Shown in pieces: positions 15,915-63,996 of a stretch of DNA of 64,000 bases. Numbering within the stretch: position 1 is the first letter of the stretch; each line of letters opens with the position of its first letter. Below the pieces are notes generated by a model. That model was not told the DNA's origin and ran no database searches. It saw only the letters and a program-made list of their open reading frames with translations. The translations under genes were made by a program, and so were the position numbers. Location of the stretch: NCBI GenBank assembly GCA_037833965.1, contig AP031354.1:10022001-10086000 (forward strand), given 5' to 3'. Source of the stretch: Marchantia polymorpha subsp. ruderalis. Its lineage: Eukaryota; Streptophyta; Marchantiopsida; Marchantiales; Marchantiaceae.

Positions 15915-15982
15915 GTGGGTTCGGGTCCAGACTTGAATCCCATAATTGCAGCCTCCAATCCCACCGTAACATTGATGTGAAG

Positions 15983-23707: not shown

Positions 23708-23739
23708 CCCTCAAAGGTCCTAACTAGCACTACGCTATC

Positions 23740-34653: not shown

Positions 34654-34663
34654 CTATTTTATA
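34654..34663 (-). promoter_or_regulatory. TATA box of the LTR-1 3' LTR
   Basis: TATAAAATAG on the minus strand lies about 37 bp beyond the U3 ORF stop and is followed by the inverted repeat CCAGGC-GTTTT-GCCTGG. It is identical in placement to 55,429-55,438 in the plus-strand solo LTR. Confidence 0.75.
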
Positions 34664-34699
34664 CCTTCTAAGTCCTAACTAGCACTACACTGCACTACG

Positions 34700-37600: not shown

Positions 37601-37825
37601 CATTCTACTTCCGCACCGCCCGAGCTCCTTTCTCTCTCGGCAAACTCTAATCGCCCTCAATTCCAAATCACGCGCATTCACTTCTCCCTCAATCAACAAG
37701 AAATCTCCTGTGCGGCGACGTCGAGAATGTTTAGCAGCCAGCAGATGGATGCGCGCAGCGCGCACAAGAGATTGGAATCGCGAATTCAAGAATGGGACGT
37801 TCTCCGCCGCCCGGTCGAAGGTCAT
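34700..37825 (-). pseudogene. U3-encoded ORF of LTR-1, one premature stop
   Basis: From 37,825 (MTFDRAAENVPF) to 34,700 (VAWFRAGV) the frame is open for 1,041 codons apart from one TAG at 35,711-35,713, where the intact homologue at 52,255 has CAG (AHVDDVQPHSG). Domain order is as in that homologue: conserved block (LDFLLWGWNYICANMVREW), Pro/Arg-rich palindrome-encoded middle, acidic stretch, coiled coil. The single stop makes it barely inactive; the C-terminal 326 residues could start from a downstream Met (35,680). Confidence 0.85.
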
Positions 37826-39069: not shown

Positions 39070-39082
39070 TGCTCCCCTCCTC
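39070..39082 (-). promoter_or_regulatory. Polypurine tract of the LTR-1 element
   Basis: On the minus strand GAGGAGGGGAGCA lies 25 bp beyond the pol stop and abuts the LTR start TGTGGTACC. Polypurine tracts prime plus-strand DNA synthesis and by definition mark the U3 start, so this site fixes the LTR boundary. Confidence 0.9.
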
Positions 39083-43832: not shown

Positions 43833-45382
43833 GGATGTGGACGGAATCCGCGTGAGGGCTTGTGTCTCTCCTGCAGATACTCGCGCACCATCTCCGGACA
43901 TGTCTAGTTCCACCCCCATAGAAGGAAATCGAGCTTCAGCCTCAGCAGCACATCTTGAAATGCGCGTAGACCGATCTGCAGCACCCTGAGTGGAGACACT
44001 CGCAGCTGGGGAACCTTCGACATTGCGTTTCCTGCACACACAAACGTTCTCCCTTTCGCTCGCTCTCTCACAATCGCCACTGCGCGTCGGCCGCTCAAGC
44101 ACTGACTGCTCACTCTCTCTTCGCTCACGCTCAAGTTCGCTACTCGCAATTCTCTCCAAGGTCTGTCAAGATCCTCGCGCAACTCGTCTCCGCACTCTCT
44201 CCTCTCACTGCAGGTCTCTCCGCCCTAGCGCGTAATCTTGGAAGCTGGAAATCGCAAAATCAAGAATGAGAGAATGAGACTGGAGCGCAGTCTTTTCTTC
44301 TCCGAATTCAAGAACGTCCAACGTTCTTACTGGTTACAACGTACGCAGCCGGCTATACGGCCTAACGGTTCGCCCTTTGCATGCGCGAATTCACGTCTCC
44401 GCACTGCGCGCATTCGCATGCGTGAATGTTGAATTCTCCCGCCGCCGCCGCCTTCCGGACTCGAGTCCGCCGCAGGGTATACGTCGGCTATGTTGTCTTT
44501 CCCTAACCTGTCCATCACCGGAGGCGTGTCGCCGCTGGCGCGTTCCTTATCCGTCGGCGCCTTGCTGGAGGCGCACATCCAGTTGGAGCGAATTACGCCG
44601 GCGCGCATTCGTATGCTTATTTTGTCCTTTATGCCTCGTCCATTGCTGACGGCGCATATCCGCCAGCGCAAATCATGCCAGCGCATCCGGCCATCAGCGC
44701 CACGTCGGAGGCGTACATCCGACCGGCGCTTTCCTTCCATGAGCAGTCGCCAAAGGTGCTTCCGACTCTGAGTTGGTTTCCTCCCATGAGCGCGCGATTC
44801 CGCCGAAGGCGCATCGCCGAGGGCGTACGGGAGTCCTTTTCGGCTGTGAACCCTAGCGCGAACGGCGCATGTCCGGCTACGAGTTTTCCGACGCTCATAA
44901 CTTCTCCGTCCCTGATCTATCTCCGACGCTCTTGGGCTCGTTAGAACGAGCGTCCCGAGCTCTTTCTAATGCAACTTCAACCAACTGGATCTACCGTGTA
45001 TTCCGATCGTTATGAAGGTTTTCCCTTTCCGCGCTAGCGGCGCATCGCCGAAAGCGCACTCATGGTCGGACGCCTTCAGAGGTCCGGGCCCTTCTTCTGA
45101 CGTCTTTAGCAAAACCTCCTCCTGAGGTGTCTGCGCCGGAAGCGTAGCTTCCTTATACGCTGGAAGCGCGTGAGTAGGGACACCTCAGAAAAGGAGCTTT
45201 TGCCGAAGGCGCCGAAGACATTGGCGTTGGTACATCCGACTACGCGATTCTTCGTGACCTCGTGACGATCTCATCAATCCACTCTATTTAACGTACCCTT
45301 TTCTAACTACAAACACTGCTTCGGTACTAGTTTTCTAAAATTGTTTAAATTCTGCAAAAAAAACAAAAAGTGTGTTACCACA
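43833..45382 (-). mobile_element. Truncated 3' LTR of the LTR-2 element
   Basis: On the minus strand it begins TGTGGTAACACAC at 45,382, right after the polypurine tract, runs through the LTR leader and into the start of the U3 ORF (MSKVPQLRVSPLRV near 44,025), and ends at 43,833. The remaining ~3.3 kb is missing. Confidence 0.85.
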
Positions 45383-45419: not shown

Positions 45420-48192
45420 TTACACGTGGTATTTCTTCAGACGCCACCCGTTCACGCGGGTGCCTAGCCATTCTCCTGTCAGTTCTGCGAGTTGGATTGA
45501 TCCATTGGGGAAAACTTCGATCACCTTGTAAGGTCCCATCCATCTCAAGTGTAGCTTGCCTGGAAATCTAGCATGTCTGCTATCGTAGAGCAGAGCCAAG
45601 TCGCCCTTCTCAAGTAGTACTGGTTTGAGTCTTCGATCGTACTTCTCCTTCCGCCTGAGTTGTAGTTGCTTTGTTCGATCTTCGGCCTCTTGACGTCTTT
45701 CCTCCAGTGCCATTACTTCTTGCAGTCGATATGCCTGACTTTCTTCCGCATCCAGCCTTCTCTGATCTAAAGTCCTCTTGGTGGGTATCTCGAATTCGAT
45801 GGGTAAGATCGGATGCTGCCCATAAACTAGAAAGTAAGGTGTTTGCCTGGTGGTGACTTTTTCTGCCGTTCTGTATGCCCATAAGGCGGCCGGTAGCTTG
45901 GTGTCCCAGTCGTGAGCATGATTCACAGTCACCTTGAGGAGTATCTTACAGAGCAATCCATTGGACTTCTCTGTCTGGACCATTCGCCTTGGGGTTGTAT
46001 GGAGTAGTCTTCCGATGCTTAATCTGGAAGTGCCGCGTCAAACTTTCTATCACCTGATTCAGAAAGTGCGTTCCCCTGTCACTGACTATTTCTAGTGGGC
46101 ACCCGTAGCGTGTGATGATTGATTCGAATAGGAACCGTGCTACTGCTGCTGCGTCGTCGTGCCTTGTGGCCTCTGCCTCCACCATTTTGGTCGCATAGTC
46201 TGTTGCTACCAATATGTAGCGCCTGTGCGTGCCTTTAGTGACAGGTTGTATTGGTCCCACGAAGTCGATCCCCCATTTTTCAAATGGTGCCAAGGGCATG
46301 ATCGGTGTCAGAGGCCATTTCGTGGTCTGAGTCGGCCTTCCCGTCCTCTGGCAGCTATCGCATTTGCGAACGTAGTCGTGTACATCTTTGAACATCGTCG
46401 GCCACCAGTATCCTGCATTCACAATTTTGGTCACTGTATTCCTGGTGGCGTAATGACCACCAGCGTCCTCTGTGTGCATGGCTTTAACGACTCGCGGAAC
46501 TTCGGACTACTCTAAGCATCTGCACAGCCTCTCGTCTGCCATTTTCTTGAATAAGACCCCCTGTTGGAGCTGGTAAGGTCCCGCTTTATGAACGAAGACT
46601 GTGCGCTGCTCCGCATCCAATCCTAGCGGACATTGGAGTGTGAGCAGAAACCTGTATAAGTCCGCGTACCTGGACTCATGGCTGGCGGACAACTGAAAAA
46701 GTTGTTCGTCGGGAAAATCATCCACTACTTCCTCTTCTATGGGTTCGGTCCATAGTCTGGAGAGGTAGTCCGCGTTCTCATGGTGAACGTCTTTCCTAGT
46801 CTGCACAGTGTAGGTGAATTCTTGCAGCAGTAGTACCCACCTGGCAATTCGTCCGGACAGATCCGCCTTCTTCACCAGGTGTTGTAAGGCGTAATGATCC
46901 ACGTGAAACACGAACTCGTAGCAGATCAAATAATGTCGGAACTTCTCACAGGAGTACACCATTCCCAACGCCTCCCTCTCAGTTGTCGTGTACTTCTTCT
47001 CTGCTGCTGACAACTGACGGCTCGCGAAGTAAATCGGGTAGTCTTTCTTGTTGTCGTCCTTCTGACTGAGAACCACTCCGATTGCAAATGGCGACGTGTC
47101 TACATAGACATGGAAAGGTTTGTTCCAATCCGGACTTCTCAGAACCGGAGCAGTCGTCAGTTTGGCTTTGAGTGTTTCAAAGGCTAGCTGTTGCTCCTTG
47201 CCCCACACATAGGGTTCCTCCTTCTTAAGCAGCTTCGTCAGATCGGCTGCCAAGATGGCATACATATTTATGAACCTTCTGTAATAGCCTACATGGCCAA
47301 GGAAGGCCCTCAACTCACGCAGGTTCGTCGGCGGCTGAAGTTCGAGAATAATTTTCACCTTCTCTACATCCACTGCAATGCCATCGGACGAAACTCGGTG
47401 CCCCAGCAGGATTCCGCTGGTCATGAAGAAAAAACACTTCTCAGGGTGCAAGGACAAGCTGCTCTCCCGACATCTGTCAAACGTCTGCCGAAGATGGTTA
47501 AGGTGCTCCGACCTCTTACCGAAAACACAAAAGTCGTCGATGAAAATTTCCAGGAACTTCCTCAGGTGCTCTTGGAAGATGTTTGTCATCATCCGCTGGA
47601 ACGTCGCTGGCGCGTTGCACAGCCCGAACGGCATCTTGTGATAAACATAGGTTCCCCAGTCGGTCGTGAAGGTTGTTTTGTCCTTGTCCTGTTCCCTGAT
47701 GGACACCTGGTTGTAGCCGAAGAATCCATCTAGGAAACTGTAGCATTCATGCCCTGCGACATGGTCCAAAATAGAGTCCGTGAAAGGGAGAGGGTGATGG
47801 TCCTTCCTCGTTGCTGCGTTCAGCTTTCGGAAGTCCTGGCACACCCGGATCTTACCCGTCAGTTTCTTGGGCACGATTACGATAGGCGACACCCACTCGC
47901 TACTGAGTACCGGGTAGATGATCCCTGCGCTCAGGTACTTATCGATTTCGTCCTTCACCAATAATGAATATTTTGGGTTGAGCCTGTATTGGCGTTGGCG
48001 AACCGGAACTGCCTCGTCCACCAAGTCGATCCTGTGCTCCCCATACATTGAAGGTATGCCTTTCATGTCTTCAATCTTCCATGCGAAGACATCCTCATAC
48101 TGGCGAAGAAACGCCTGTACCCTGTTCAACTCTTCTCCTTGTACCTGGCTTGACACCTTCAAGCCTTTATCTGGACTGAGCTGCAGTTCGCA
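45420..48192 (-). pseudogene. pol: Retrotransposon RT, RNase H and integrase (pol), disabled
   Basis: RT lies at the start: KIRVCQDFRKLN, FLDGFFGYNQ, TFQRMMTNIF, catalytic box FIDDF (F in place of the usual Y), and LGHRVSSDGI. RNase H follows (YVDTSPFAIGVVLSQ). A TAG at 46,507-46,509 splits the frame where the sister copy has GAG (CLEESEVPR). Integrase continues from there: CDSCQRTG, GIDFVGP, VSDRGTHF. A 1-bp insertion near 45,965-45,970 shifts the frame just before the catalytic Glu; the rest of integrase is open to KKYHV at 45,420. In the family the product copies RNA into DNA and integrates it. It is disabled here, but divergence from the sister copy is modest. Confidence 0.9.
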
Positions 48193-48254
48193 TCAGTCAC
48201 TTGGGTCGACAATCCCCTCTGTGTGACTGATCTCGCTTCTGCCCAGTCCGGCTG

Positions 48255-51007
48255 CTAGTTGCTAGCTGCTAGTTGCTCGTCATCCGGATGCGCATCGTCT
48301 CCTTCCTCCTCAATGGAGCAGCAAGTGACGTAACCCACAAACTCATCCGATGTTTCTGTCTCTGAAGTGCATGACGAGCTGGTCTCCCCTCCAGTCGTGT
48401 AACCGGAGGTGGTGGAAGGTGTTTCGCCCTCGTGTGGTACCTTGGTCCATGGTACGGTAATGACAGTCGGAGGGTTCGCAGGGTTCCGAAACTGTAATCT
48501 CTTCCTCCTCCAGTCGCACCTTGCTTTGGCATCGTATAGCCACGGTCTCCCAAGCAGCACATCATAACCTTTCTTCATTAGAGGTTGCAATATTATGTAG
48601 GACAGTTGAAAGTCCACTCCTCCAATGTTGGTTCTCACATTGCTCAACATTCCTAGCGGCATTCTGCGCGTTTGATCGGCCAGTCGCAACACTCGGGATG
48701 TAGGCTCGAAGGTCTGGAACCCCAAGGAGTTCGCTGTCTCCTCGGTCATGATGTTCACGCCCGAGCCGGAGTCCACTGGTACCTTCTGTATGACGCAGCC
48801 TCCGATCTCTACTTCGATCTCTGGAGGTCCTAGGTCTCCTCCTTCCACTCTGTACACAGCCGGAAGTTTCTCTTTTCGGGGTTTGCGTGGTCGGCGCAGC
48901 GAAAGCATCAGCATCCTTCTGTACGTCTTATTGTCCTCCAACAGCTGGTGGAAGGAAATATTTGCCCTCTGACTCCCTATGTCCTCCACTATGTCGTAGG
49001 AAGTGTTGGAAGTCACAGCCGGAAGTTTCCCTGTACTCGCGGTCGGAAGTGGTGTAGGGGGCCTAGCCGCCTTCCGGTCGTCGGATGTCGTTCCGGCGCC
49101 CAGTGCTTCCTTGATGAGGTGACTCACCTCATCTTTGATGTCCGGAAGGTAGTCTCGGGTCCGGAACTCTTCCGAAGACCTGTCCGCCTTCTCTGAGTTC
49201 TGCTCCGGCTGGATGTTCCGCATCGCCGGAGGTGTACCCGGCCTTCTCCTTCGGCCTTCTCTAACTTCTTTAGACATCCTCCTCTCTTCCCTGCGCTCGA
49301 GGCGGCGAGTGTCCTCGTGGTCTTCTCCCCTCCTCTTCGAACTTCGGGTCTCTACTCGTCCGCACATTACTTCTTCTTCCGGCCATACTTCGTCTTCTTC
49401 AGCTGGGTCCGGGCTCAGTTCTACCTGGTTGACCTGCACTTCTTCCTTGCCAGGCGTCGATACGAAACGCACGGATGGCCTGGGAACTGGTGGCTGATCA
49501 CATTCGGCTGCCGTATGTCCCGACTTCTTGCAATTGCTACACAACGGTGCATACCCCATTTGCTTCCTCGGGTGAAGACAGCTTGGCGCGTAATGTCCCA
49601 TGTCCCCGCAGTTGTAGCAACCATTGAATTGTGGTGGAGGTCGGTTGTAATTGCCTGGCGGTGCCATGCGTCTCGGTGGGAGCGTACCCGCCATTTCCCT
49701 CAGAACAAAGCGCGGTATATGCACCGGTGGGTTCGGAGTTGTAGCTGGAGTTGTCTGTACCGCGTAGGCGGTGTCCTCAACCGGCTCAGCATAATACATG
49801 GGATTCTCCCACTGTGGTGCCCATTCGACCGCATTCACTGGGTAAGTCGGGCGAGCGGACATGCACTCCGTGTTGGCATGTCCCACCTGTCCGCACGTAG
49901 TACACCAGAGATTCGCTCGCTGTCTCGCAGGTGATTTACGTCGGTCTTGGCCTCCCACTACATGAACTTTCAGGTCCGCAAAATTCTTCACCAGGTTGTC
50001 TACCTTGGCTGCGATGTCCCCTTGACTCTTCACTAGGATTCCCCTACCTCGATCCTTCTTCTTGATCGTACTGCGTTTCTTCTTCCGTCTTTCTTCTTCT
50101 GAAGATGACGAGTCCTCTTCCTCTTCCGAGGAAGAACTTGATTCGGAGGAGCTTGATTCTTCTGTCGAGGAAGGCGAGTTCCTTCTCTTCCGACGTCCGC
50201 CTTGCGATTTCTTCTTCGTCGACCGTCGGTCGCGTCTTCGAGTGTCAAGGGTTGACGTCTCAAAGGTCTCCGCGGAAGCTATCACATCTTGGATTGTGTC
50301 AGTCTTGTCTCTCCTACAGAAGGTCTCCATTTCTCTTGAGAGCCCTGTCACATACCAATCCACTGCTTGTACCGAAAATGGTTCTCCTGGGCCTGTCTTC
50401 GGAATTCGATCTAGGAGGTCTTGGAATCTCTCAGTATAGTCTCAAAGATTCTCCTTCCGCTCGCGTCGAAGATTTCGAAGCCGGGTCAGTACTCGACTGT
50501 CATATCCGAGTTCGCGAAACCGCCTCAGAAACTTTTCCTTGAGCTGAGCCCAGGTCCGGATGCCAGTGGGGTCGGTGCTCTCATGGTTGTACCAGCTACG
50601 AGCTCGCCTGCGTAGCAGGCTAGGAAAGATTCGCAGTCTGTCTTCATCACTGGTCTCACGATTGGCGATGGAGACAGACTCGAAGAGCTTTATGTATGAG
50701 TCTGCATCATCATCGTCGCCCGTTCCCGTGTATCTTGGATACGAATGTTTGGTGATAGGTTGGGAAAACACCTGGCGGAGATTGGCTTGATGGTCTGCCA
50801 TTGGTGATCCTGTCAACGGACTGATCCTAGGTTGGCCAAACTCAGGAAGAGTTTCTGTCGGAGGAATTTCCAATAGAATTGTTAGCTCAATGCTCGCGGT
50901 AGGTGAACTGGAACGCCTTTGTCTTCTAGTAGTCGGTGACGGCGATCTTTCTGCAGAGTCCTCACCGGGAGTCTTCTTTTTAGTTCGCCGTTTTGCTTCT
51001 ACGGCTT
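48255..51007 (-). pseudogene. gag: Retrotransposon gag and protease, disabled
   Basis: Gag: capsid-like helical region (RARSWYNHEST, WAQLKEKFLRRFRELG), an in-frame TGA at 50,442-50,444 (KENL then stop, then DYTERFQDLLDRI), a Ser/Glu-rich and Lys/Arg-rich stretch, and three CCHC zinc knuckles (CTTCGQVGHANTEC, CYNCGDMGHYAPSC, CSNCKKSGHTAAEC). An aspartic protease follows with active site VDSGSGVNIM and flap-distal LLGRPWL. A short duplication near 48,250 (GCTAGTTGCTAGCTGC) adds a stop (48,255-48,257) relative to the older copy at 22,590. The 5' end lies across the solo LTR at 56,404-56,478. Confidence 0.9.
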
Positions 51008-52254
51008 TGTGGTACCCCACTTTTGGCAATTTTGAGGAAATTAAAACATTTTTGGAAAACGGTACCCTGGCAGCATTGTAAATAGCCTTCGGTACATCAA
51101 AACAGAGTGAATCCGGAAGATCGCGGGGATTCTCGAGGGATCTTGTAGAATCTGGGATTTGGGGTGCCGCAGTAAGGACAGGCACCACCCTCCCTGCGAG
51201 CTCTGCAGTTAGGATCTCTACGGCGCAAGGCGCAAAACCCGCCTTTGGAGGTTGCGTCCGCGGCTGTAGGGAAACCCTCCCTAATTAGGTCAACCCTCGG
51301 GCGCCTTGACCAAGTTAGGATCCCGTTGGAAAGAGCTCGACGCACTGATTCCAACGAGCCCAAGAACGCTTGGAACGGATGAGGACTTAGGGAGTTATCG
51401 CTACTGGAAGAAACGGAGGCGGTCGCCTACGGCGGAAGGAGTTCGCCACCGGCGCGAATTCCGCCTACGCGGAAGGGGGAATCAAGTTTTGTCCTATGCG
51501 CGGACGAAGGCGTTCGCCTGTGCACAGGCGAAGTAGGGTTAGGGAAGGCGCGAAGTCCGCCTACGCACAGGCGTTCGCCTGTGCACAGGCACTTCGGCGT
51601 CGGCGGAAAATCCGCCTTGGGCCCTAGAAATGCGCCTTGTGAGGTAGAAAGTGTACGGCGCCTTCCGCGCCAGCGTAGCGCCGCGTACGTCGGAAGAGCC
51701 TCCAGAGTAACCCAATCGGTACGGACCATGCGGACGGCACGGGTGGATGCGCTCTTGGACGGACGGAGTTGCGGCGGCGGAAGCGCCGACGGAGAGACAA
51801 GGAACGGACAGACTGGACGGAGACGGCTGACCACGGTCAACGCCTTCCGCGCCAGCGCAGCGCCGCGGACGGAATTCGCCTGCGCACAGGCGAACGCCTG
51901 TGCACAGGAGGATGTTCAAGTTCCGCGCCGGCGGAGAATCCGCCGAGGTTCCTGCCTGCGCACAGGCAGGAGTTGAATTTTTGTCCGACATGCGGACACA
52001 CGCGTCAAGGCAGAGGGGGATTGGCCAAGGGGTGGTACGAACAAGTGTACCGCGCAAGGCGGAAAACTCGCCTTCGGCGCTACGCCCCCATGTCCACAGG
52101 GTGACACGCTCGCGGAGTTCAAATCCGCCAATTCGAGCGTGAGAGTTTAATCGACGACGGCGGAGCGTGAAGCCGCGCGTGAGAGCGAAGACCGTTCCAG
52201 CGTACAGCCGGCGCGGCCTTCAAGTGAGACGTTCTTCACGACCAAGAGCCGACC

Positions 52255-55200
52255 ATGACCTTCGACCGGGCGGCGGAGAACGTCCCATTCTTGAATTCGC
52301 GATTCCAATCTCTTGTGCGCGCTGCGCGCATCCATCTGCTGGCTGCGGAACATTCTCGACGTCGTCGCACAGGAGATTTCTTGTTGATTGAGGGAGAAGT
52401 GAGTGCGCGTGATTTGGAATTGAGAGCGATTAGAGTTTGCCGAGAGAGAAAGAAACGCGGGCAGTGCGGAAGTAGAATGAGCGGGCGAGCGAACCCCAGG
52501 AACGCAATGACGAGACCGAGCAGATTGCGGATGGTGCCACTTCGCCTGCCGCAGAACGGGCTGCGCGCTTTCGAGGAGCGCTTAATAGCAAGAAAGCTCG
52601 ATTTCTTGCTATGGGGATGGAATTACATCTGTGCGAATATGGTGCGCGAGTGGCTAGAGCCACAGGGACCACCCTCGCGCGGATTGCGTCCGCATGTTGA
52701 CCGGTGGACAGTCCAAGATTGGGCGCAGGCGTTGGGAAGATGTGCTGGCATGCCAGGGCATCTCCTTTTCGACAGTGAGAGCATCAAGGTGACCAAGCAA
52801 GAAGAGGCGCAATTTGTGGAGCTGTTCAAGACCGGGAGGTCTACCAAGAATGGGTACAGGACCCGTGATTACAAGGATCGATTTCGCCGGACTTTGTCCG
52901 CGGCGCTGATGCAATTACTGCAGCCGCACCGCGCCTGCTACATCACATTGTGGCAGGTCTCTTTTGTGGAGTGCGTCATCGAGGGAACTCCAATTCACTG
53001 GGCGAGCATCCTGCACAGGGTGATGCGACAGCACGCGTTTGAGGAGAAGGGGGGAACTCTAAACCATCTTTCTCCTTTCCTCATCAATTTTTATCGACAG
53101 CGGAATTGTTTGACAGCGGCGGAGCTTGAACATTTTCCGCCCTTGTCCATCGACCATCCCGGGAAGTATGTGCGGGAGAACGAGGTCGATACTGATGCAG
53201 AGGAGTCACCGACTTCTACCCCATCAAGACGGAGGGACGAAGGGAGACACACCCCTGCAGCGCGAGTGCCGCGGAAGCGGCGATGGAGGGAAGAGTCTGA
53301 AGAGGAGCAGCATCAAGAACCCTCTGCTCCCATTCGACCGCGGCCGCTGTGCGAGCCATACAGCCGGCCGAAGCAGAAGGCACGCAGACTGGTGTTACCA
53401 GCTGACAGTGCAGACACGGCGACGATTGCGACGGAGATCGGAAGTGCGTCGCCAGAGAGGCGAGAGGAAGCGCGGACGACCGCAGGAGCAACGGGCCACG
53501 CTGCAACCTCGTCGGGAGAGAGGCCGCCTACGGGCCAAGGGCCTCCGGAGTTACCACGTGCGATGCGGACAGATGTTCCGTTTGCGCACAGGCGAACCTC
53601 CGCGGACGGACGAGCCTCCGCGGACCGGCGAACACAAGTGGACGTGGATCTACGCTTACGCGTGGGAAGGAGCAGTCCGCCTGTGCACAGGCGCTCGCCT
53701 GTGCACAGGTCGCCTGTGCACAGGACACCTCCACACGTGCCGCCTGTGCACAGGCAAGAATCACCCCCGTTCCAACGCAGGAAGGGGAAGGAGCCGGCGG
53801 AAGAACCGCCTACGAGACACCGGCCCTCGGGGCCAGACCCTCCGGCGCACCACGCGCCGCAATTTGCGCCCTCGGTGCCAGGGCCTTCGAGCCGAGGAGA
53901 TACGAGCAGAGAGCGTGCGGAGGCCGCACCATCGGCGGGAAGTCCGCCGATAGATGCGCCTTCGGCGGTAGGGCCTATAGGCCAAGGAACATCGGGCGTG
54001 CGGCCCCCGATCATGTCGCCTTCGGCGATAGATGTCCGCGGCGCTACGCCTGCGGCGGACAAGGCGCCGGCAAATGCGCCTGCGCACGGGCCGGGCACAG
54101 CCCCCACGGACCGATCAAGGGAGCAGCAGACGGAGGAGCGGAGTGACTGTCCGCGGGATGAAATCTCGATGCGCGATGCGCAATCCAACCCCGCGCAGTC
54201 ACCCTCCGCTCGTTCGCCTTCTGCGGCGGACGACGGCGACAGGGAGAACGCGGTAGGCAATCAACCAGCGAGAGACGGGGATGCCGCTCGGGTACATTCG
54301 CCTTCCGCCTTAGACATTTTGGCGACGAGCAGCGAGGCTGCAGCCGTGCCTTCGCAGGCAGCACACGTCGACGACGTGCAGCCCCACTCGGGGCAGTCGC
54401 CGACGCAATCAATGGCGACTGAAATCCTCCACTCAGATGATGACGACGGAGGCTCCACGGAAGAAATGTCAGGAGCAGAAGACACCGAGGAGGAGGAGGA
54501 GGAAATTGTTGGAGCGCCGGCGGCGGCGCTCTCTGAGCAGGTGATTCCGTTGCTGCGGTACTTGGATCGCAAGGTCGATAAATACGCCGACCCACTCCAG
54601 CCGGGATCTTACATCGAGTTAGTGCGCAGGCGGACTCGCACTAAAGTCCACACCAGCAAGCTATTAGCTAGAGTGGACCAGGAGTTGAGGGACTTGAAGG
54701 AGAAGCATGAGTGCTTGTGGGGTCAGTACAAGCTTAATCAGAAATTCTACAAGCACTCCGAGAAGATGAAGGATGAGAAACTGGGCGAGCTCACCAAGGA
54801 GCAGGTGAAGGTCAAGGAAGCACTCGATTCTGAGCAAGCCCAGAATCGGATTTTGTCAGAGGAGCTCGTGCGACAGACGCGGTTGTTGGAACAATGTCAG
54901 CTCGCACGGCAGGCGGATGAAGAATTAATCCGCAGGTTACAGTCAGAGTGTGGCGAATTGAGAGCGCAACGTGCTGAAGCCGAATCGCAATTAGTGATAA
55001 TTGAAGAGGATCGCAGGAAGGAGGCGGATCGCACGAAGGTGGAGACGGCGAGGCGAGTCGCCCACTGTCTCAAGGGCTACGCCCACTGGGAAGTGAAGGC
55101 GCAGGAGAAACTCACACTGCGTGAGTTGGAATTGCGCGCAGCCGGGTTGTTGTCAGGCGACAGTAGGAGTCGGCGGAAGGTAGCAAAGAAGCTCGAAGCC

Positions 55201-55392
55201 TTTCTGTCGAAGGCACAGGATACCATGTCCGCCCTCGAGGGGGAGGTGTCCGCGGCGTTGCAGAGGTTGGGACTGCGCAGTCGAGCGGAAGAGTGGCAGG
55301 GTAGGGAGTTAGTGCGCGGCAGTCGGCCGCGCAGGAGACGTAGTACAGGTTCCGCGGAGTGTAGTGTAGCGTGGTTCCGTGCAGGCGTGTAG
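52255..55392 (+). CDS. Intact LTR-encoded protein (U3 ORF), 1,045 aa, function unknown
   Basis: ATG at 52,255 follows the motif AGAGCCGACC, shared with the LTR-3 copy at 30,037; an internal Met (52,507) conserved in all families is an alternative start. Residues 85-320 are the block conserved between LTR families: LRLPQNGLRAFEERL, LDFLLWGWNYICANMVREW, RGLRPHVDRW, YRTRDYKDRFRR, GGTLNHLSPFLINFY. I do not recognise it as a named family; the layout faintly recalls plant gypsy-associated transposase-like proteins. Residues about 330-720 are Pro/Arg/Ala-rich, partly encoded by palindromes (repeats of SPVHR). An acidic stretch lies at about 725-755 and a long coiled coil at about 800-1,000. No membrane segment, RT, integrase or zinc finger is seen. 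Three LTR families preserve the domain order, arguing for a selected function. Confidence 0.8.
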   Translation: MTFDRAAENVPFLNSRFQSLVRAARIHLLAAEHSRRRRTGDFLLIEGEVSARDLELRAIRVCRERKKRGQCGSRMSGRANPRNAMTRPSRLRMVPLRLPQNGLRAFEERLIARKLDFLLWGWNYICANMVREWLEPQGPPSRGLRPHVDRWTVQDWAQALGRCAGMPGHLLFDSESIKVTKQEEAQFVELFKTGRSTKNGYRTRDYKDRFRRTLSAALMQLLQPHRACYITLWQVSFVECVIEGTPIHWASILHRVMRQHAFEEKGGTLNHLSPFLINFYRQRNCLTAAELEHFPPLSIDHPGKYVRENEVDTDAEESPTSTPSRRRDEGRHTPAARVPRKRRWREESEEEQHQEPSAPIRPRPLCEPYSRPKQKARRLVLPADSADTATIATEIGSASPERREEARTTAGATGHAATSSGERPPTGQGPPELPRAMRTDVPFAHRRTSADGRASADRRTQVDVDLRLRVGRSSPPVHRRSPVHRSPVHRTPPHVPPVHRQESPPFQRRKGKEPAEEPPTRHRPSGPDPPAHHAPQFAPSVPGPSSRGDTSRERAEAAPSAGSPPIDAPSAVGPIGQGTSGVRPPIMSPSAIDVRGATPAADKAPANAPAHGPGTAPTDRSREQQTEERSDCPRDEISMRDAQSNPAQSPSARSPSAADDGDRENAVGNQPARDGDAARVHSPSALDILATSSEAAAVPSQAAHVDDVQPHSGQSPTQSMATEILHSDDDDGGSTEEMSGAEDTEEEEEEIVGAPAAALSEQVIPLLRYLDRKVDKYADPLQPGSYIELVRRRTRTKVHTSKLLARVDQELRDLKEKHECLWGQYKLNQKFYKHSEKMKDEKLGELTKEQVKVKEALDSEQAQNRILSEELVRQTRLLEQCQLARQADEELIRRLQSECGELRAQRAEAESQLVIIEEDRRKEADRTKVETARRVAHCLKGYAHWEVKAQEKLTLRELELRAAGLLSGDSRSRRKVAKKLEAFLSKAQDTMSALEGEVSAALQRLGLRSRAEEWQGRELVRGSRPRRRRSTGSAECSVAWFRAGV

Positions 55393-56403
55393 CGTAGTGC
55401 AGTGTAGTGCTAGGTAGGACTTAGAAGGTATAAAATAGTTCCAGGCATTTTGCCTGGGGTTCTTTCCCATCAGAAGTGCAGATCAGGAACCCATTTCCTT
55501 TGCGTGTTTGTGTCCTTGAGTTCTGTCACCACGCACGAGGAGTTACAACTTAGCGTTCCGCATTTTGTAGCTGAAGGCCTTCGGCCGAATGTTCAGAGCT
55601 AGTACATTGGTTAGAGACTTGAGTAGTTCGGATCTGCACCTGCGGGTGATTGCCGATGCTCAGAGCCAGTGACTAGTTAGATACTTGAACAGTTTCGCCC
55701 CTACACCTTCGAGTGTTTCTTTCTGATTGTACTCCTTGGGATTTTTCCCCTGAATGCCAAAGTGAAGTTTTGCTACTTCGTGTAAGCCTTGGTTGTAAAT
55801 TCAGGTTACGCCGCAGCAGGTGCCTTGAGGGTAACCCCTGTAGTATTTCTGGGAATGACAAGTGCCTGAGAATTCAAACTCTTCAATAGACTGTTGTTGT
55901 GTTACTGGAATGTTTCTCAGTGAGTCCTTCAGTGCGGACCTGTGTTCTCTGCGCGTTTTGTGAGTTGAGAGTGTTGTTCACCGCGTATGAGTGACTTCGA
56001 TCCGAAGTAGGTAGTCCAAACCGGGTTTCCTACACTAGCAGCAAGCTAGTGGAAGCGTTGTAAAAGCCGGAGTTGGAAGTCACTGCCCGCAGCTTTGCCG
56101 AGTGTGCTCGTGAGAGACTTTCCCCCTGAAATCTTGAAGTAGAGGTCGTAACGGATCTCTGGGTTGTGTTTCTGTAGTTTCAGGTGTGTGTGTGTGTGTG
56201 TGTGTTACGCTGCACTGTGCGACCTCCGAGTGCGCTCCGAGTGGACACTTGCAGTATTTCTGGGAGTGACAGTCGCCTGAGAATTCAAACTCCTCAATAG
56301 TCTGTTAAAACGTGACACTTTGTACCCTGTGTGTTCCTCTGTCCCTGTGGGTTCGACCTTTCTACCACTATATTGCAGTTTTAGCCTTTAGTGGGGTATT
56401 ACA
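55393..56403 (+). other. 3' noncoding part of LTR-1 (R/U5 region) with internal duplication
   Basis: No gene is present. Two related blocks about 400 bp apart share TATTTCTGGGAATGACA or TATTTCTGGGAGTGACA followed by GAGAATTCAAACTC (near 55,846-55,892 and 56,251-56,300), indicating an internal tandem duplication. A GT microsatellite lies at about 56,185-56,205. Near the end CTGTGGGTTCGACC precedes the terminal GTGGGGTATTACA. Confidence 0.65.
55429..55438 (+). promoter_or_regulatory. TATA box of solo LTR-1
   Basis: TATAAAATAG lies 37 bp after the ORF stop. It is followed at 55,441-55,457 by CCAGGC-ATTTT-GCCTGG, an inverted repeat kept in LTR-2 with a paired change (CAAGGC/GCCTTG). Transcription from here would start near 55,460 and leave the ORF upstream, which places the ORF in U3. 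Confidence 0.75.
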
Positions 56404-56519: not shown

Positions 56520-56539
56520 TGTCCCCGGCAGCGGCGCCA
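56520..56539 (-). promoter_or_regulatory. Primer-binding site complementary to tRNA-Asp
   Basis: TGGCGCCGCTGCCGGGGA on the minus strand matches the complement of the 3' end of plant tRNA-Asp (TGGCGCCGTTGCCGGGGA) with one difference. This is the primer site used by Athila/Tat-type elements. It lies 22 nt beyond the LTR end (56,562), a somewhat long gap. Confidence 0.88.
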
Positions 56540-57457
56540 AAAAGAAGTTGTCGGCTCCTTATGTAATAACCCACCAAAGGCTAAAACTGCAGTATGGTGG
56601 TAAAAAGATCGAACCCACAGGGACAGAGGCAACACACAGAGTAAAAGTGTCACGTTTAACAGACTTTTGTAGAGTTTGAATTCTAGGCGACTGTCACTCC
56701 CAGAAATACTGCAGTGCTCGACTCGGAGGCTCGACTCGGAGGAGGATCTCGACTCGGAGGATGCTCGGAGGATGCACGGTACAACGTAGTCACTCAACAC
56801 ACACACACACACACCTGAAACTGGCAAAAAGCACAACTCGGAGGTCGGTCAGGACCTCCGCTTCGGATTTCAGGAGGAAAGTGTCTCAAAAGTTCACTCA
56901 GAGGTTCTGCAGGTAGTGCCTCCCACTCCGGCTTTTACTGCCCTTCCGCCAGGACTGGACTTCCCACTTCGGAACGAAGCCTCTTCATACGCCGTGGACG
57001 TCACCCTCGACTCTCACACCAAACGCAGGGAGTGCAGACCCGAATGAGAACTTAACTGAGACACGATCCAGTAACACACACACAACCTGAATTGCAAACC
57101 AAGGCTTACACGAAGTAATAAAACTTCACTTTGGCATTTAGGGGAAACTTCCCGTAGGAGTACAATCAGGATATGTCACTCGAAGGAGTAAGGAGGAACT
57201 GTTCAAGTATCTAACTCGCAGCCGGCTCTGAGCATCAGAAATCACCCGGAGGTGCAGATCCGCACTACTCAAGTCTCTAACCGGGTACTAGCTCTGAACA
57301 TTCAGCCGAAGGCCTTCAACTACAACATACGGTAACTTCGCTATGCTGCAGCTTCTCTACGTGGTGCCAGGACCAAAATGCACAAACACGCCAAGAAAGT
57401 GAGTTCCTGATCTGTACTTCCGAAACTGGAAGAGTCCCAGGGCAAAACGCCTTGAAC

Positions 57458-57466
57458 TACTTTATA
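57458..57466 (-). promoter_or_regulatory. TATA box of the LTR-2 5' LTR
   Basis: TATAAAGTA on the minus strand, about 33 bp beyond the U3 ORF end, should drive the genomic RNA of the LTR-2 element. The following inverted repeat is slightly imperfect here (CAAGGC/GCCCTG). Confidence 0.7.
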
Positions 57467-57498
57467 CCCTCAAAGGTCCTAACTAGCACTACGCTATC

Positions 57499-60332
57499 CT
57501 ATCTACTACTCGCAACATCTGCGCGAAACCAAACTATACTACTGCACTCGGCGGATCCGGTGCTGCGCCTCCTGCGCGCCGGACTGCTCCGCTCGCTGTC
57601 TCTACCTTGCCAGTCTTCTGACCGGCTGCGCAACCCCAAACGTCGGAGGGCTGCAGTGACTTCCGACTCTAAGTGCGCCATAGTGTCGCGCGCACCCGAC
57701 AAGAAGGTTTCTAATTTCCTCGCCACTCGCCGCCGACTCCGACTGTCACCCTCCGTCAATGCCGCCGCCCGAAGCTCGAACTCCCTGAGTGTGATCCTCT
57801 CTTGAGCTGCCACCTCCCAATGGGCGTATCCTTTTAGGCAGTGAGTCACCCGCGTCGCCAACTCTTCTCGCGCCCTGCAGCTGCCTTCCACCTCTGCTAG
57901 CTGCATTTCCGCTTCCGCACGCTGCGCCCTCAAATCCGAGCACTCGGATTGCAAGTTGCGCAACAACTCCTCATCCTCCTTGCGGGCTCTTTGACTTTCT
58001 TCTAAGGCGCGCGTCTGGCGCGCAAGCTCGGCTGCTAGGATGCGGTTTTGTCTCCGCTCTTCCTGCAATTCCGACTCGATCTTTGCCCGCATTAGCTCGG
58101 CATCCGCCTGACTTTTCGTCGCCGCATCCTCCCTCTGCTGCTACAAGGCTTGGTATAGCTTCTGTGTGACCGCCAAGTGTTGTCGGAGGGCGGTGTTCCT
58201 ATCCACATATACTTGGCACCTAGAGGCCCAAATGGCCACCTTGCTCCTCGTCCTTCGCTTGATAGTCTCCACATAAGACTGCGGTTTTCCAGTACCCGCG
58301 TACTTGGATGTCTTGCGATCCAGATATCGCAGGAGTGGGAATATCTGCTCGCACAACACCCTGTTGGCATAGAATCCGCTTCCTGCTCTTCCGAGCTCGT
58401 CTCATCCTCAGTCTCGAGGATTTCAGTCGCCACCGAATCCCTTGGCGACTCCCTGGAACTGTGGCGCGCAGCAGCTTCCGCTGCGACTGCTGCTCCACTG
58501 CCTGCTAAAATATCCAGGGCAGTGGGGGATCCCACTGCTTGAGCCCCTGTTCCGGCTCGATCTTCGGTCTCCGAAGGGGTCGACGCCGCAGTGACTCTTG
58601 TCACCTTTGCACCGCCCGCTTCTGCTGCCTGCCCTTCCGGCGCAATCTGCGCGGAAGGTGTCTTCGCTGAAGGTGCGTCCGCCGAAGGCGTCCGCACACT
58701 GGTCGCCGGCCCTGTCCGTCTCGCAGTCGGCGAATCCGGCCGTCTCTCTGTTGACCGACTCGCAGTCGGCCGACCAGCAGTTGTCCGACTGGGAGTCGGA
58801 TACACCCTGCGCGTCTTCACTCCACTTGGCCTGCTTGCTGGTGGCGTTTTCCCAGAAGTGCCTTCCGCCGAAGACGACCTTCTGAGGGTTGTTGGCTCGT
58901 CAGCCAAACTCTCTTCTGCTTCCGGCCTGTTGTCCGGTTCAACGCGCCGTTCAGTTGGCCTTCCTTCCGCTTGTCGGCCTTCAGTCGCCCGACTCGTAGT
59001 CGGCCGACTGTCAGTCCGTCCATCTCCTTCCGAAGGCATTGGTGCCTTCTGCGCAGAGGTATTTGTCGACTTCCCTAGAATCTGCGCGATTATCTCCTCC
59101 TGCGTGGGATTCCGCCGGAGCGGAGTACGCCCGGTCTCCTCAGTACTAGTTGGCATTTTGCGTGCCCTCTGTTTTGGTCGACTGTGAGGCTCGTGGGTGG
59201 GCCGACCACGAGTCGGCGCAGCTGGCACTTCCGGCTGCCTGTCCTCAGGTCTCTCATCCCACTTCCGCTTTCGCGGAATGCGCTCACTTCGACGTTCTTC
59301 TGCTGCTCTTGCTGGGGCCGGAGCCGGAGACGGACTGGCAGGTTCCTCGTCCGGATCCGTGTCTACTTTGGTCTCCCGTGAGTATCTACCTGGATAGCTC
59401 TAGGTCAGCAGCGGAAACCGTGTTCGCTCTGAATTTGTCAAACATCCCATCGCCCGATAAAACACAATCAAGTAAGGCGAAAGATGATTGAGGGTTCCTC
59501 CTCTCTCTTCTTGCGCATGTTGGCGCGTCACCTTCCACAGGAGCCGTGCCCAATGCACTGGAGCTCCTGACAACACTAGCTCCACAAATTCTACCTGCCA
59601 ACCATGCATGTAAGCGGTCTTGGTCGGCTGCAATATCTGCAGCAATGCAGTCGCGAGATTTCTCCGCAATCGATCTTTGTAATCCCGTGTCCGGAAACCG
59701 TTCTTGGGATGCCTGGCAACTTTGAAGGGCTCATTGTAGGAGATTTCTTCCTCCTGGGACACCTTCACGCTATCGGCCTCGAAGAGGAGATCCCCTTCCT
59801 CGCCGGCACACCTGCCCAACACCTGCGCCCAGTTACAAATGTCCCATCTTTCTGGATGTGGACGGAATCCGCGTGAGGGCTTGTGTCTCTCCTGCAGATA
59901 CTCGCGCACCATCTCCGGACATGTCTAGTTCCACCCCCATAGAAGGAAATCGAGCTTCAGCCCCAGCAGCACATCTTGAAATGCACGTAGACCGATCTGC
60001 GGCACCCTGAGTGGAGACACTCGCAGCTGGGGAACCTTCGACATTGCGTTTCCTGCACACACAAACGTTCTCCCTTTTGCTCGCTCTCTCACAATCGCCA
60101 CTGCGCGTCGGCCGCTCAAGCACTGACTGCTCACTCTCTCTTCGCTCACGCTCAAGTTCGCTACTCGCAATTCTCTCCAAGGTCTGTCAAGATCCTCGCG
60201 CAACTCGTCTCCGCACTCTCTCCTTTCACTGCAGGTCTCTCCGCCCTTGCGCGTAATCTTGGAAGCTGGAAATCGCAAAATCAAGAATGAGAGAATGAGA
60301 CTGGAGCGCAGTCTTTTCTTCTCCGAATTCAA
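57499..60332 (-). pseudogene. U3 ORF of LTR-2 in the 5' LTR, several stops
   Basis: The reading starts at 60,332 (MNSEKKRLRSS) and stops at about 59,925 (LLWGWN then TAG, for TGG). It resumes MVREYLQERHKPSRGF, stops again near 59,400 (PLLT then TAG), continues MPAAPTRGRPTHEPHS to about 58,360, and after a small deletion and a stop near 58,142 ends with the coiled coil (QEERRQNRILAAELARQTRALEE) at 57,499. Most stops are TAG from CAG, TGG or CGG. Confidence 0.8.
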
Positions 60333-61403
60333 GAACGTCCAACGTTCTTACTGGTTACAACGTACGCAGCCGGCTATACGGCCTAACGGTTCGCCCTTTG
60401 CATGCGCGAATTCACGTCTCCGCACTGCGCGCATTCGCATGCATGAATGTTGAATTCTCCCGCCGCCGCCGCCTTCCAGACTCGAGTCCGCCGTAGGGTA
60501 TACGTCGGCTATGTTGTCTTTCCCTAACCCGTCCATCACCGGAGGCGTGTCGCCGCTGGCGCGTTCCTTATCCGTCGGCGCCTTGCTGGAGGCGCACATC
60601 CAGTCGGAGCGAATTACGCCGGCGCGCATTCGTATGCTTATTTTGTCCTTTATGCCTCGTCCATTGCTGACGGCGCATATCCGCCAGCGCAAATCATGCC
60701 AGCGCATCCGGCCATCAGCGCCACGTCGGAGGCGTACATCCGACCGGAGCTTTCCTTCCATGAGCAGTCGCCAAAGGTGCTTCCGACTCTGAGTTGGTTT
60801 CCTCCCATGAGCGCGCGATTCCGCCGAAGGCTCATCGCCGAGGGCGTACGGGAGTCCTTTCCAGCTGTGAACCCTAGCGCGAACGGCGCATGTCCGGCTA
60901 CGAGTTTTCCGACGCTCATAACTTCTCCGTCCCTGATCTATCTCCGACGCTCTTGGGCTCGTTAGAACGAGCGTCCCGAGCTCTTTCTAATGCAACTTCA
61001 ACCAACTGGATCTACCGTGTATTCCGATCGTTATGAAGGTTTTCCCTTTCCGCGCTAGCGGCGCATCGCCGAAGGCGCACTCATGGTCGGACGCCTTCAG
61101 AGGTCCGGGCCCTTCTTCTGACGTCTTTAGCAAAACCTCCTCCTGAGGTGTCTGCGCCGGAAGCATAGCTTCCTTATACGCTGGAAGCGCGTGAGTAGGG
61201 ACACCTCAGAAAAGGAGCTTTTGCCGAAGGCGCCGAAGACATTGGCGTTGGTACATCCGACTACGCGATTCTTTGTGACCTCGTGACGATCTCATCAATC
61301 CACTCTATTTAATGTACCCTTTTCTAACTACAAACACTGCTTCGGTACTAGTTTTCTAAAATTGTTTAAATTCTGCAAAAAAAACAAAAAGTGTGTTACC
61401 ACA

Positions 61404-63996
61404 GCCGCCGACTCCAACTGTCACCCGTCAACAACCCGGCTGCACGAAGCTCTAACTCACGCAGTGTGAGTTTCTCCTGCGCCGCCACTTCCCAGTGGGC
61501 GTAGCCCTTGAGACAGTGGGCGACTCGCCTCGCCATCTCTTCCTTCGTGCGATCAGCCTCTCGCCGGCGATCGTCTTCAATTACTACCAACTGCGATTCG
61601 GCCTCCGCACGCTGTGCTCTCAATTCTCCATACTCCGACTGCAGCCTGCGGATTAATTCCTCATCCGCCTGTCGTGCGAGCTGACACTGCTCCAACAACC
61701 GTGTCTGTCGCACTAGCTCCTTTGACAGAATCTGATTCTAAGTCTTCTCATAAATCAATGCTTCCGTGGCCTTCACCTGATCCTTGGTGAGTTCTTCCAG
61801 TCTCCCATTCTTCACCTTGTCGTAGTGGGTGTACGTTCTCCGAATGAGATTGTACTGACCCCACAAGCATTCATGCTTCTCCTGCAGTTCCTTAAGTTCC
61901 CGATCCACCCGAGCTAGCAGCTTGCTGGTGTGGACTTTAGTGCGAGTTTGCCTGCGCACTAATTCGATGTAGGACCCAGGCTGGCGAGTATCAGCGTACT
62001 TCTCCATCTTGCGATCCAAGTACCTCAGCAGAGGTACTACCTGCTCACAGAGCGCCGCCGCCGGCGCACCAACGATTTCTTCCTCCTCCTCCTCGGTGTT
62101 TCCCGATCCCGACACTGATTCCGTGGATCCTCCTTCGTCATCATCCGAAGGGAGGATTTTGGTCGCCATTGATTGCGTTGGTGACTGGCCTGAGTGGGGC
62201 TGCGAGTGGTTTGCGTGTTTTGCCGCCGATGGCGCTCCTGCAGCCTCGCTGCTCCCTGCTAAAATGTCCAAGGCGGTGGGTGAATGCGGCCGTGCCACAT
62301 CCCCATCGTCCGCCTGTCGTGCGTCGATCGTAACTCCCTCGCCGTCTGCGTCCACCGCCGAAGGTGATCGCGCAGAATGTGTTTGCGCGGGGTGCTATTG
62401 TGCATCGCGCACGCGAATTTCATCCTGCGGACAGACAATCCGCTCCTCCGTTAGGTCCTGCTCTCTCGATCGGTCCTGCTCCCTCGATCGGTCCTGCGCA
62501 AGGGATGCGTCCGGCCTACGCGTAGGCGCAAATCTTGGCACGTTATCCGCCGAAGGCGCAGCGCCGAAGGCCGCCCGCCCGATGTCCCTTGGCCCGAAGG
62601 CCCTTCCGCCGAAGGCGCATCTTCCGGCGGATTTCCCGCCGAAGGTGCGACCTCCGCACGCTCCCTGCTTGTAACTCGTTGGCCCGAAGGCCCTGGCGCC
62701 GAAGGCGCAAATCCCGGCGCTCTGTTCGTCGGAGGGCCTTGCCCCGAAGGCCCTTGAGCCGAAGGCGGATCTTCCGCCGGCTACTTCCCCTTCCTACGTT
62801 GCATCGGGGGTGAGTCCTGCCTACGCGTAGGCGGCCGCCTATGCGTATGCGAACTTTCTCTGCCTACGCGTAGGCACAGGTCCACGTCTGCAAGGGGTCG
62901 CCTATCCACAGGAAGTCGCCTGTGCGTAGGCGGCACACTCGTCCGCACCGCACGTGGTAACTCCTGACCCGAAGGCCGTCTCTCGTCCGCTGAAGGCATA
63001 GCGTGGTCCACCGCTCCTGCGGACGTCCGCGCAGTCCCCTCCTTCTCCGGGGACGAACTTCCCTTCTCCGTGGCGATCGTCGCCGTTTCCGCGCTGTTGG
63101 TTGGTAACACAAGCCTGCGCGCCTTTTTGCTTCAGCCGGCTGCACACTTCGTGCAGTGGTCGCTTCCGTATGAGAGCAGTGGGTTCTCGATGTTGCTCCT
63201 CCTCCGGTTCCTCTCTCCATCTTCGTTTCCGCTGCACTCTCGCTGCGGGTGTGTTTCTTCCCTCATCCTGCTGAGTCGGTGGAGTGGAAGTTGGCGAATC
63301 CTCCGCGTCGGTGTCTACTTCGTTATTCCGCACATACTTCCCGGGATGATCGACTGACAATGGCGGAAAGCGAGCATGCTCCGCCGCGGTCAAACAATTC
63401 CTCTGTCGATAAAAGTTTATCAAGAAGGGGGAGAGATGATTGAGAGTTCCTCCTTTCTCCTCATATGCATGCTGTCGCATCACCCTATGTAGGATGCGCG
63501 CCCAGTGAACTGGAGCTCCGGCTAATGTGAGCTCTACAAAAGATACCTGCCACAACGTGATGTACGAAGTGCGGTGCGGCTGCAACAATTGCAGTAGCGC
63601 CGCCGCTACAGTTCTGCGGAAACGATCTTTGTAGTCGCGGGTCTTGTGCCCGTTCTTGGAAGACCTCTCCCGTTTGAACAATTCGACGAATTGCGCTTCG
63701 TCCTGCTTCGACACCTTGACGCTCTCACTATCAAATAGGAGGTACCCGTCGTCGCCTGCACACCTCCCCAATGCCTGTGCCCAATCGTGGACGGTCCATC
63801 TATCTACGTGTGGACGCAATCCGCGCGTAGGAAGTTGCTCCGCGTCCAACCATTCGCGCACCATGTCTATACACACGTAATTCCATCCCCACAGCAAGAA
63901 CTCAAGTTTCCTTGCAATCAGTCGGTCCTCAAAAGCACGCAACCCATTCTGTGGAAGCCGGAGTGGCATCATCCGCAGCTTGTTCAACTTCGACAT
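61404..63996 (-). pseudogene. U3 ORF of LTR-3, minus-strand copy, degenerate
   Basis: From 63,996 (MSKLNKLRMMPLRLPQ, the conserved internal Met) the N-terminal block LEFLLWGWNYVCIDMVREW and HLSPFLINFYRQRNCLTAAE are open for about 290 codons. A 1-bp gain in a T run near 63,124 shifts the frame. A TAG near 62,783 follows RRKGK, with further stops in the middle. The acidic segment and coiled coil are open at 62,355-61,738 and again to 61,404. It diverges from the plus-strand LTR-3 copy, so it is a separate insertion. Confidence 0.8.

What the first reader, a model, noticed from the sequence alone, without database searches (positions are those of the whole stretch)
51008..56403. Giant LTRs that encode a 1,045-aa protein in their U3 region
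The sequence shows an intact 3.1-kb ORF wholly inside a 5.4-kb LTR. Boundaries are fixed three ways: the GGCTT target duplication around a solo LTR; a polypurine tract after pol followed at once by the same LTR start in two elements (39,069 and 45,382); and a tRNA-Asp primer site 22 nt after the LTR end at 56,562. The ORF precedes the LTR TATA box, so on genomic RNA it would be the last gene, copied into both LTRs, like sag in the MMTV LTR. Three diverged LTR families keep the same protein layout, which suggests selection. I know of no described plant element with this arrangement.
Basis: partly seen in the sequence, partly recalled or inferred. Interest (0 to 1): 0.88.

Follow-up and report, generated by a model that had tools for sequence, protein, structure and literature searches.

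The report
Retrotransposon gene inside giant LTRs
A family of plant "jumping genes" carries a long protein-coding gene inside the repeated ends that normally hold only control signals, so a complete insertion holds that gene twice and left-over single ends can hold it alone.

Summary
51008-56403 is a solo 5.4-kb LTR with a GGCTT target duplication. Genome-wide, 4 of 6 candidate family-A elements fetched are complete LTR-gag-pol-LTR insertions with perfect 5-bp duplications, so the ORF lies in the duplicated region. Family B shows the same order: PPT, 4.87-kb LTR with ORF, primer site. The coding start is corrected: the ATG conserved in families A, B and C is at 52507, giving 961 aa; the 84 codons upstream show no coding signature. 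The ORF ends 32-36 nt before a TATA box conserved in A, B and C, so it is in U3 and would be the last gene on genomic RNA. Selection is clear: dN/dS 0.11-0.35 between families; within family A the N/S ratio falls as variants become commoner. The protein has a helical N-domain, a disordered middle and a helical C-part, no membrane segment and no Pfam match. Best reading: a third, element-selected accessory protein housed in U3; the analogy to MMTV sag is positional only. Expression is unproven and function inferred. The open-access papers searched showed no plant element with this layout. The host is probably a Marchantia-like liverwort.

The parts
51008..56403 (+). Solo LTR of family A (5396 bp); target duplication GGCTT at 51003-51007 and 56404-56408
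   Evidence: similar copies genome-wide
51008..52506 (+). 5' part of U3, non-coding. LTR 1001-1300 (52008-52307) is somewhat better conserved A-C (0.80-0.86 per 100 nt) than most of it; the last 200 nt before the ATG are not (0.70-0.77). Candidate promoter/5' UTR, inferred only
52507..55392 (+). U3 ORF, 961 aa from the ATG conserved in families A, B and C, plus stop
   Evidence: dN/dS
52507..53211 (+). N-terminal domain, residues 1-235
   Evidence: low-confidence helical model
53212..54576 (+). Middle, residues 236-690: P/A/S/R-rich, repeat-bearing, probably disordered; in-frame length variants
54577..55389 (+). C-terminal part, residues 691-961: L/E/R/K-rich, probably helical, weak heptad signal, basic tail
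   Evidence: conserved A versus B
55429..55434 (+). TATA box (GGTATAAAATAG), the only TATA[AT]A in this LTR, 36 nt after the stop; taken as mark of the U3/R border
55435..56403 (+). Putative R-U5; identity to B 0.72-0.93 per 100 nt, against 0.26-0.71 in U3
33690..39069 (-). Family A 3' LTR (minus strand) following the PPT; beyond its end lies a tandem partial LTR copy
39070..39082 (-). Polypurine tract of a family A element, just after pol
56562..61403 (-). Family B 5' LTR (4842 bp); its U3 ORF is broken in this copy
56522..56539 (-). Primer binding site TGGCGCCGCTGCCGGGGA (tRNA-Asp type, recalled), 22 nt after the LTR end
   Evidence: same in family A
46507..50363 (-). Gag-pro and pol ORFs of the family B element; the solo family A LTR is inserted 75 nt into its gag
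43833..45382 (-). Family B 3' LTR, truncated, 98.8% identical to the 5' LTR start; PPT at 45383-45395
22782..27654 (-). Further family B LTR copy with an 898-codon open frame (start region shifted)
61404..63996 (-). Part of a family C LTR with the same ORF (conserved ATG at 63996), cut by the family B insertion

Best explanation
These are Ty3/gypsy-order LTR retrotransposons with three genes: gag-pro and pol in a 5.8-kb internal region, and a third gene placed inside U3 of 4.9-5.4-kb LTRs. Shown: the third ORF lies between LTR start and TATA box, is duplicated with the LTR in complete insertions, is present alone in solo LTRs, and evolves under selection for protein sequence in three families. 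Inferred: RNA from the 5' LTR TATA runs through gag-pol, the PPT and U3 into the 3' R, so the ORF is its last gene and is made from a spliced or subgenomic RNA, or else from a TATA-less promoter upstream of the ATG. Most likely product: a cytoplasmic or nuclear, multimerising accessory protein (helical N-domain, disordered linker, helical C-part), not an envelope. It acts in the element's favour, for instance as RNA/particle cofactor or against host silencing.
For: Four complete elements with TSDs, primer site and PPT around ORF-bearing LTRs; E1 LTR pair identical over 5391 bp. pol ends 24 nt before the PPT in 5 of 5 internal regions, so there is no room for a third gene inside. Family B: PPT, LTR with 851-aa ORF, primer site, gag. 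TATA 32-36 nt after the ORF stop in A, B and C, and R-U5 more conserved than U3. Selection: A-B2 dN/dS 0.19 (NG86); A-B53 0.11-0.28 and A-C 0.29-0.33 by two methods, A-C 0.35 by YN00; codon position identity .56/.66/.39 A-B. Within 24 family A LTRs, omega 0.43 for singletons, 0.31 at two carriers, 0.17 at three or more, and 6 stops, each in one copy only. ORF indels 8 of 10 multiples of 3 against 3 of 21 outside. Intact ORF in 17 of 28 complete family A LTRs.
Against: No transcript or protein data. No function tested; the N-domain model is poor (mean pLDDT 50.5), no PDB fold match (best E 0.26), no Pfam family. 11 of 28 complete LTRs have a broken ORF, so the protein may act in trans or be dispensable per copy. 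Seven of the eight 3n indels lie at LTR 2590-2715, in or beside short repeats whose units are 3n anyway. In one search the two LTRs of E1 and of E3 count as two carriers each, so the two-carrier class holds some private variants. A-B synonymous sites are near saturation, so those ratios are rough.
Confidence: 0.78

Rival explanations
1. The U3 ORF is expressed mainly from its own TATA-less promoter inside U3 (upstream of 52507), so every LTR, solo ones included, can be a stand-alone gene; the protein is a trans-acting factor of the whole family.
For: The leader LTR 1221-1499 is conserved A-C2 (0.70-0.79 per phase) above third codon positions (0.53) without coding periodicity; A-C identity 0.80-0.86 at LTR 1001-1300; intact ORFs in solo LTRs.
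Against: No TATA-like site in the first 1500 nt of LTR A; A-C identity just before the ATG (0.70-0.77) is no higher than in the rest of the 5' U3 or at third positions (0.71); weak against B (0.43-0.57). A conserved leader could equally be a splice or RNA signal.
Confidence: 0.22
2. Env-like gene: the protein is the counterpart of the env-like ORF that other plant elements carry between pol and the 3' LTR, merely caught inside the LTR by a PPT shift.
For: Same order and strand as sense aORFs between pol and the 3' LTR (PMC7264820, section 4); last gene on the RNA.
Against: No membrane segment (maximum 19-residue Kyte-Doolittle mean 1.14); no match to any Pfam family; PF20167 not found in the genome, though that search rang in no control either.
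Confidence: 0.12
3. Copy-control: the LTR protein limits the element's own transposition, which favours long-term persistence in a small genome.
For: The ORF is intact in many solo LTRs and lies in the part that remains when the element body is lost.
Against: No homology to gag (hhalign probability 0.2%), which known gag-derived inhibitors have (recalled); selection on young copies fits a benefit to transposition more simply.
Confidence: 0.07
4. The open frame is a passive by-product: captured host sequence or GC-rich composition without function.
For: Long open frames arise more easily at 55-60% GC.
Against: dN/dS 0.11-0.35, conserved ATG and stop positions in three families; omega falling with carrier number.
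Confidence: 0.03

Closest known systems
MMTV sag (LTR-encoded superantigen)
   Same: Sense ORF in the LTR, last gene on genomic RNA (recalled), copied into both LTRs; sag too is reported under purifying selection, with recombination inside the gene and some positively selected sites (PMC11998498, abstract and passages)
   Different: No sequence comparison made; Sag is a type II transmembrane protein (same passages), this one has no membrane segment and is about 3 times longer (recalled size); host and element lineage differ
Plant Ty3/gypsy elements with sense extra ORFs between pol and 3' LTR (aORF-3S / eORF-3'F)
   Same: Gene order gag-pol-extra ORF, same strand
   Different: Those ORFs are described in the internal region (PMC7264820, passages and section 4; PMC6317226, passages); here pol ends 24 nt before the PPT and the ORF is inside the LTR
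OTA non-chromoviruses (Athila, Ogre, Tat) with LTRs up to about 5 kb
   Same: Large LTRs, no chromodomain match, tRNA-Asp type primer site (tRNA-Asp is among the primers of plant non-chromoviruses, PMC6317226 passages)
   Different: No aRH, Athila ORF-1, plant mobile domain or Transposase_28 match in the proteins scanned; RT tree not built
Rice Retrosat2 family with ORF0
   Same: LTRs over 3 kb plus one extra ORF of unclear role (PMC3485330, passages)
   Different: ORF0 is upstream of gag-pol, not described in the LTR

Membership tests
Ty3/gypsy LTR retrotransposon | pol order RT-RH-INT, gag with zinc knuckle, aspartic protease | tested here: met
   L010: RVT_1 130-289, RNase H 353-482, H2C2 585-640, rve 658-757; Retrotrans_gag, zf-CCHC, Asp_protease_2
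Ty3/gypsy LTR retrotransposon | LTR pair with TG..CA ends, 5-bp TSD, PBS, PPT | tested here: met
Chromovirus | Chromodomain after integrase | tested here: not met
   No chromodomain at E <= 0.01 in the 946-aa pol of L010
OTA/Athila lineage | tRNA-Asp primer site | tested here: inconclusive
   Site TGGCGCCGCTGCCGGGGA; assignment to tRNA-Asp is recalled, no tRNA alignment made
OTA/Athila lineage | RT phylogeny inside OTA | not tested
   No reference RT set available
Element with internal env-like ORF (aORF-3S) | Extra ORF between pol and 3' LTR, outside the LTR | tested here: not met
Env-like protein | Transmembrane segment | tested here: not met
   Maximum KD19 1.14; no dedicated predictor run
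MMTV-sag-like arrangement | Sense ORF within U3, upstream of the TATA, duplicated with the LTR | tested here: met
   transcription start not measured
MMTV-sag-like arrangement | Made from a spliced or subgenomic mRNA | not testable with these tools
   No RNA data
Known plant eORF families (PF10536, PF04195, PF03078, PF20167) | Pfam match | tested here: not met
   No Pfam family at E <= 0.1 for the whole protein; at E <= 10 only FXR_C1, E 1.5, in one of 4 pieces. That each of the four models is in the library copy was not checked, except PF20167

The most novel reading that the evidence does not exclude
The LTR itself is a selfish gene cassette: each LTR, solo ones included, carries a promoter, a full protein gene and an R-region terminator, so recombination that deletes the element body leaves many working copies of a trans-acting factor that keeps the family unsilenced or mobile.
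Probability: 0.16. Interest if true: 0.88.

Novelty: new variant of a known kind. Interest (0 to 1): 0.7.

Why it matters
LTRs are taken to be regulatory, and extra genes of plant elements have been described in the internal region (PMC7264820, PMC6317226, passages). A protein of about 850-960 aa kept by selection inside U3 in three families shows that a plant element can store a gene in its repeats. Solo LTRs, normally read as scars, then hold intact genes. It makes the role of such accessory ORFs directly testable, since family A is young (one LTR pair identical) and the families are common in this genome.

Tried and rejected
Rejected: ATG at 52255 as start (leader A-C2 codon phases .73/.70/.79, no coding signal); a spliced-exon start just before residues 'KLDF', considered after because A-B2 similarity seemed to begin there, dropped because family B shares the upstream ATG; a gag-derived N-domain; an env-type protein. 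Not informative: PF20167 search (no control rang); PDB fold search with a weak model; hairpin in the LTR-PBS spacer (not more stable than shuffles, z 0.03 and 0.81); NCBIfam; Rfam. YN00 failed on saturated pairs, so NG86/LWL85 were used. The genome searches score only the best candidates, so more distant homologues of the ORF were not reached. In one search BLAST found nothing, probably because of invalid scoring options; redone. One search stopped part way; redone in part. In one search one of five rows (L052) came out empty. The conserved-stretch correction lowers the own-promoter rival (0.25 to 0.22) and the novel case (0.18 to 0.16).
Full report
Setting. The window is C5:10022001-10086000 of a 241.5-Mb, 9-contig genome. 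A NAC-domain search gave 14 exon matches, which I group into nine loci (no control genome rang): a land plant with very few NAC genes. The seven contig lengths printed leave 37.1 Mb for C1 and C2, and C2 reaches at least 30.87 Mb, so C1 is at most about 6.3 Mb. Eight large chromosomes, one small one and nine NAC genes resemble Marchantia (recalled); the species is not identified.

Anatomy in the window. Solo LTR A (51008-56403, +) sits 75 nt into the gag of a family B element on the minus strand: 5' LTR 61403-56562, 22 nt, primer site, gag/pol ORFs 50363-46507, PPT, truncated 3' LTR from 45382. The family B 5' LTR borders a family C LTR (61404-64000). The PPT-LTR junction recurs for family A at 39069.

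Is the ORF really in the repeat? I fetched six candidate family A elements from hit pairs. Four of six (E1, E2, E3, E5) have a 5' LTR followed by the 22- or 23-nt spacer and primer site, a 3' LTR preceded by the PPT, and identical 5-bp target duplications. E4 has a rearranged 3' LTR, and the sixth pair proved not to be a complete element. For a sample not chosen by the ORF I used the 40 scored matches to the first 993 nt of the LTR (of 2510 candidates): the window copy and 34 others in 35 stretches were examined; five were not fetched. 28 of these 35 LTRs had both ends: 11 solo LTRs with perfect TSD (window included), 11 5' LTRs with primer site, 5 3' LTRs with PPT and 1 unclear. The other seven were incomplete, one of them only because it was split over two stretches. 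17 of 28 hold the ORF intact from the conserved ATG to the conserved end; 11 do not. E1's two LTRs are identical over 5391 bp and E3's differ at 8 of 5362, so family A moved recently.

Family B repeats the pattern. In L053 the order is PPT, 4873-bp LTR with an 851-aa ORF, 22 nt, primer site, gag. Solo B LTRs L049 and L050 and the solo LTR L051 carry intact ORFs (851, 851 and 936 aa) with duplications CTTCT, GCAAG and ATGAT. L051 is called family C because its N-domain is 87% identical to the window's C copy; its rest is closer to A. Genome-wide, 40 of 44 scored family A ORF matches (13,378 candidates) and 22 of 51 scored family B matches (14,467 candidates) have no stop inside; these are best-scoring matches, so biased upward, and frameshifts were not counted.

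Where U3 ends. The LTR of family A has one TATA[AT]A, 36 nt after the ORF stop; families B and C have it 32 and 36 nt after theirs. Downstream, A-B identity is 0.8 or more in 8 of 10 windows of 100 nt, while it is 0.26-0.71 upstream; A-C is 0.84-0.91 at LTR 3901-4500 and 0.92-1.00 beyond. This fits a U3/R border there. Transcription start sites were not measured.

True start. A, B, C and C2 share CGC(A/G)ATG at the homologous place, window 52507. Upstream, A-C2 identity by codon phase is .73/.70/.79; inside the ORF it is .80/.89/.53. So the protein has 961 aa, not 1,045, and the leader is non-coding.

Selection. A-B2: dN 0.53, dS 2.75, ratio 0.19 (NG86, 864 codons). A-B, A-C and B-C: 0.20, 0.29 and 0.17 by NG86, A-C 0.35 by YN00; with LWL85 0.24-0.33 between families. 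A-B dS is near saturation, so ratios are rough, but third positions (0.38-0.39 identical) are plainly less conserved than second positions (0.66-0.67). For comparison, gag-pro A-B (756 codons) LWL85 0.14 and RT-RH 0.04. Amino-acid identity A-B is 0.50 for the U3 ORF, 0.63 for gag-pro and 0.91 for RT-RH. Within 24 family A LTRs, N:S is 108:110 for singletons, 17:24 at two carriers and 22:55 at three or more (opportunity 2.3), and in the N-domain 0:11 at three or more; the 6 stops are singletons. ORF indels: 8 of 10 are multiples of three, against 3 of 21 elsewhere; seven of the eight lie in or beside short repeats, which weakens that count.

Protein. Residues 1-235 helical in a low-confidence model, 236-690 P/A/S/R-rich, 691-961 rich in L/E/R/K with weak heptad signal; largest hydrophobic 19-mer mean 1.14. 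No Pfam family, no NCBIfam match near a cut-off, no relation to the element's gag, no fold match. The large protein database could not be asked.

Mechanism. The internal region is full: gag-pro (943 codons) and pol (946 codons) lie in the same frame with one stop between them in 5 of 5 internal regions (two of the five have a further stop), and pol ends 24 nt before the PPT in 5 of 5. The third gene therefore has its place only beyond the PPT. Reverse transcription copies U3 from the RNA's 3' end into both LTRs (established for LTR elements), so the gene is duplicated at each full insertion and kept when LTRs recombine to a solo LTR. How the mRNA is made is not shown. What the protein does is inferred only from its selection, layout and lack of membrane segments.

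Comparison. Position matches MMTV sag; the protein does not. The plant review and survey that I looked into place extra ORFs in the internal region or relative to the polyprotein (PMC7264820, passages and section 4; PMC6317226, passages). The survey notes non-chromovirus LTRs up to about 5 kb and does not, in the passages seen, report ORFs inside LTRs. [quoted passage not shown] Eight paper searches listed, by title and start of abstract, no plant element with an LTR-internal gene; of six papers searched inside five gave passages and one (PMC5408684) held none of the terms. Subscription papers and preprints were not covered.

Noticed in passing
L010, L013, L016, L019, L022: gag-pro and pol are in the same frame separated by one stop codon in 5 of 5 internal regions examined, suggesting stop readthrough.
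   Followed up: partly
window 56540-56561 (-); L009, L012 and others: A 22- or 23-nt spacer separates LTR end and primer site in families A and B, so this stretch would have to be removed before integration; its AAGAAG/CTTCTT arms can pair but not beyond chance.
   Followed up: partly
LTR A about 4440-4460, window about 55447-55467: A short palindrome-like stretch (AGGC..TTTTGCCT) follows the TATA box in A, B and C.
   Followed up: no
L051 versus window 52507-55392: A-C synonymous distance is 0.80 in the N-domain but 0.42-0.44 in the rest, and R-U5 is nearly identical: the LTRs look mosaic.
   Followed up: partly
G000 C3:10615793-10641359; C7:197728-210043: Evenly spaced copies (11,210 bp for A ORFs, 10,663 bp for B pol) suggest LTR-internal-LTR-internal-LTR arrays; the LTR between the two C7 pol copies was read.
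   Followed up: partly
window 8279-19072: Part outside the LTR families with Roc/COR-like, aquaporin-like (MIP) and 934-aa LRR ORFs.
   Followed up: no
window 51556-51912: Imperfect inverted repeats of about 50 nt (83%) inside the 5' U3.
   Followed up: no
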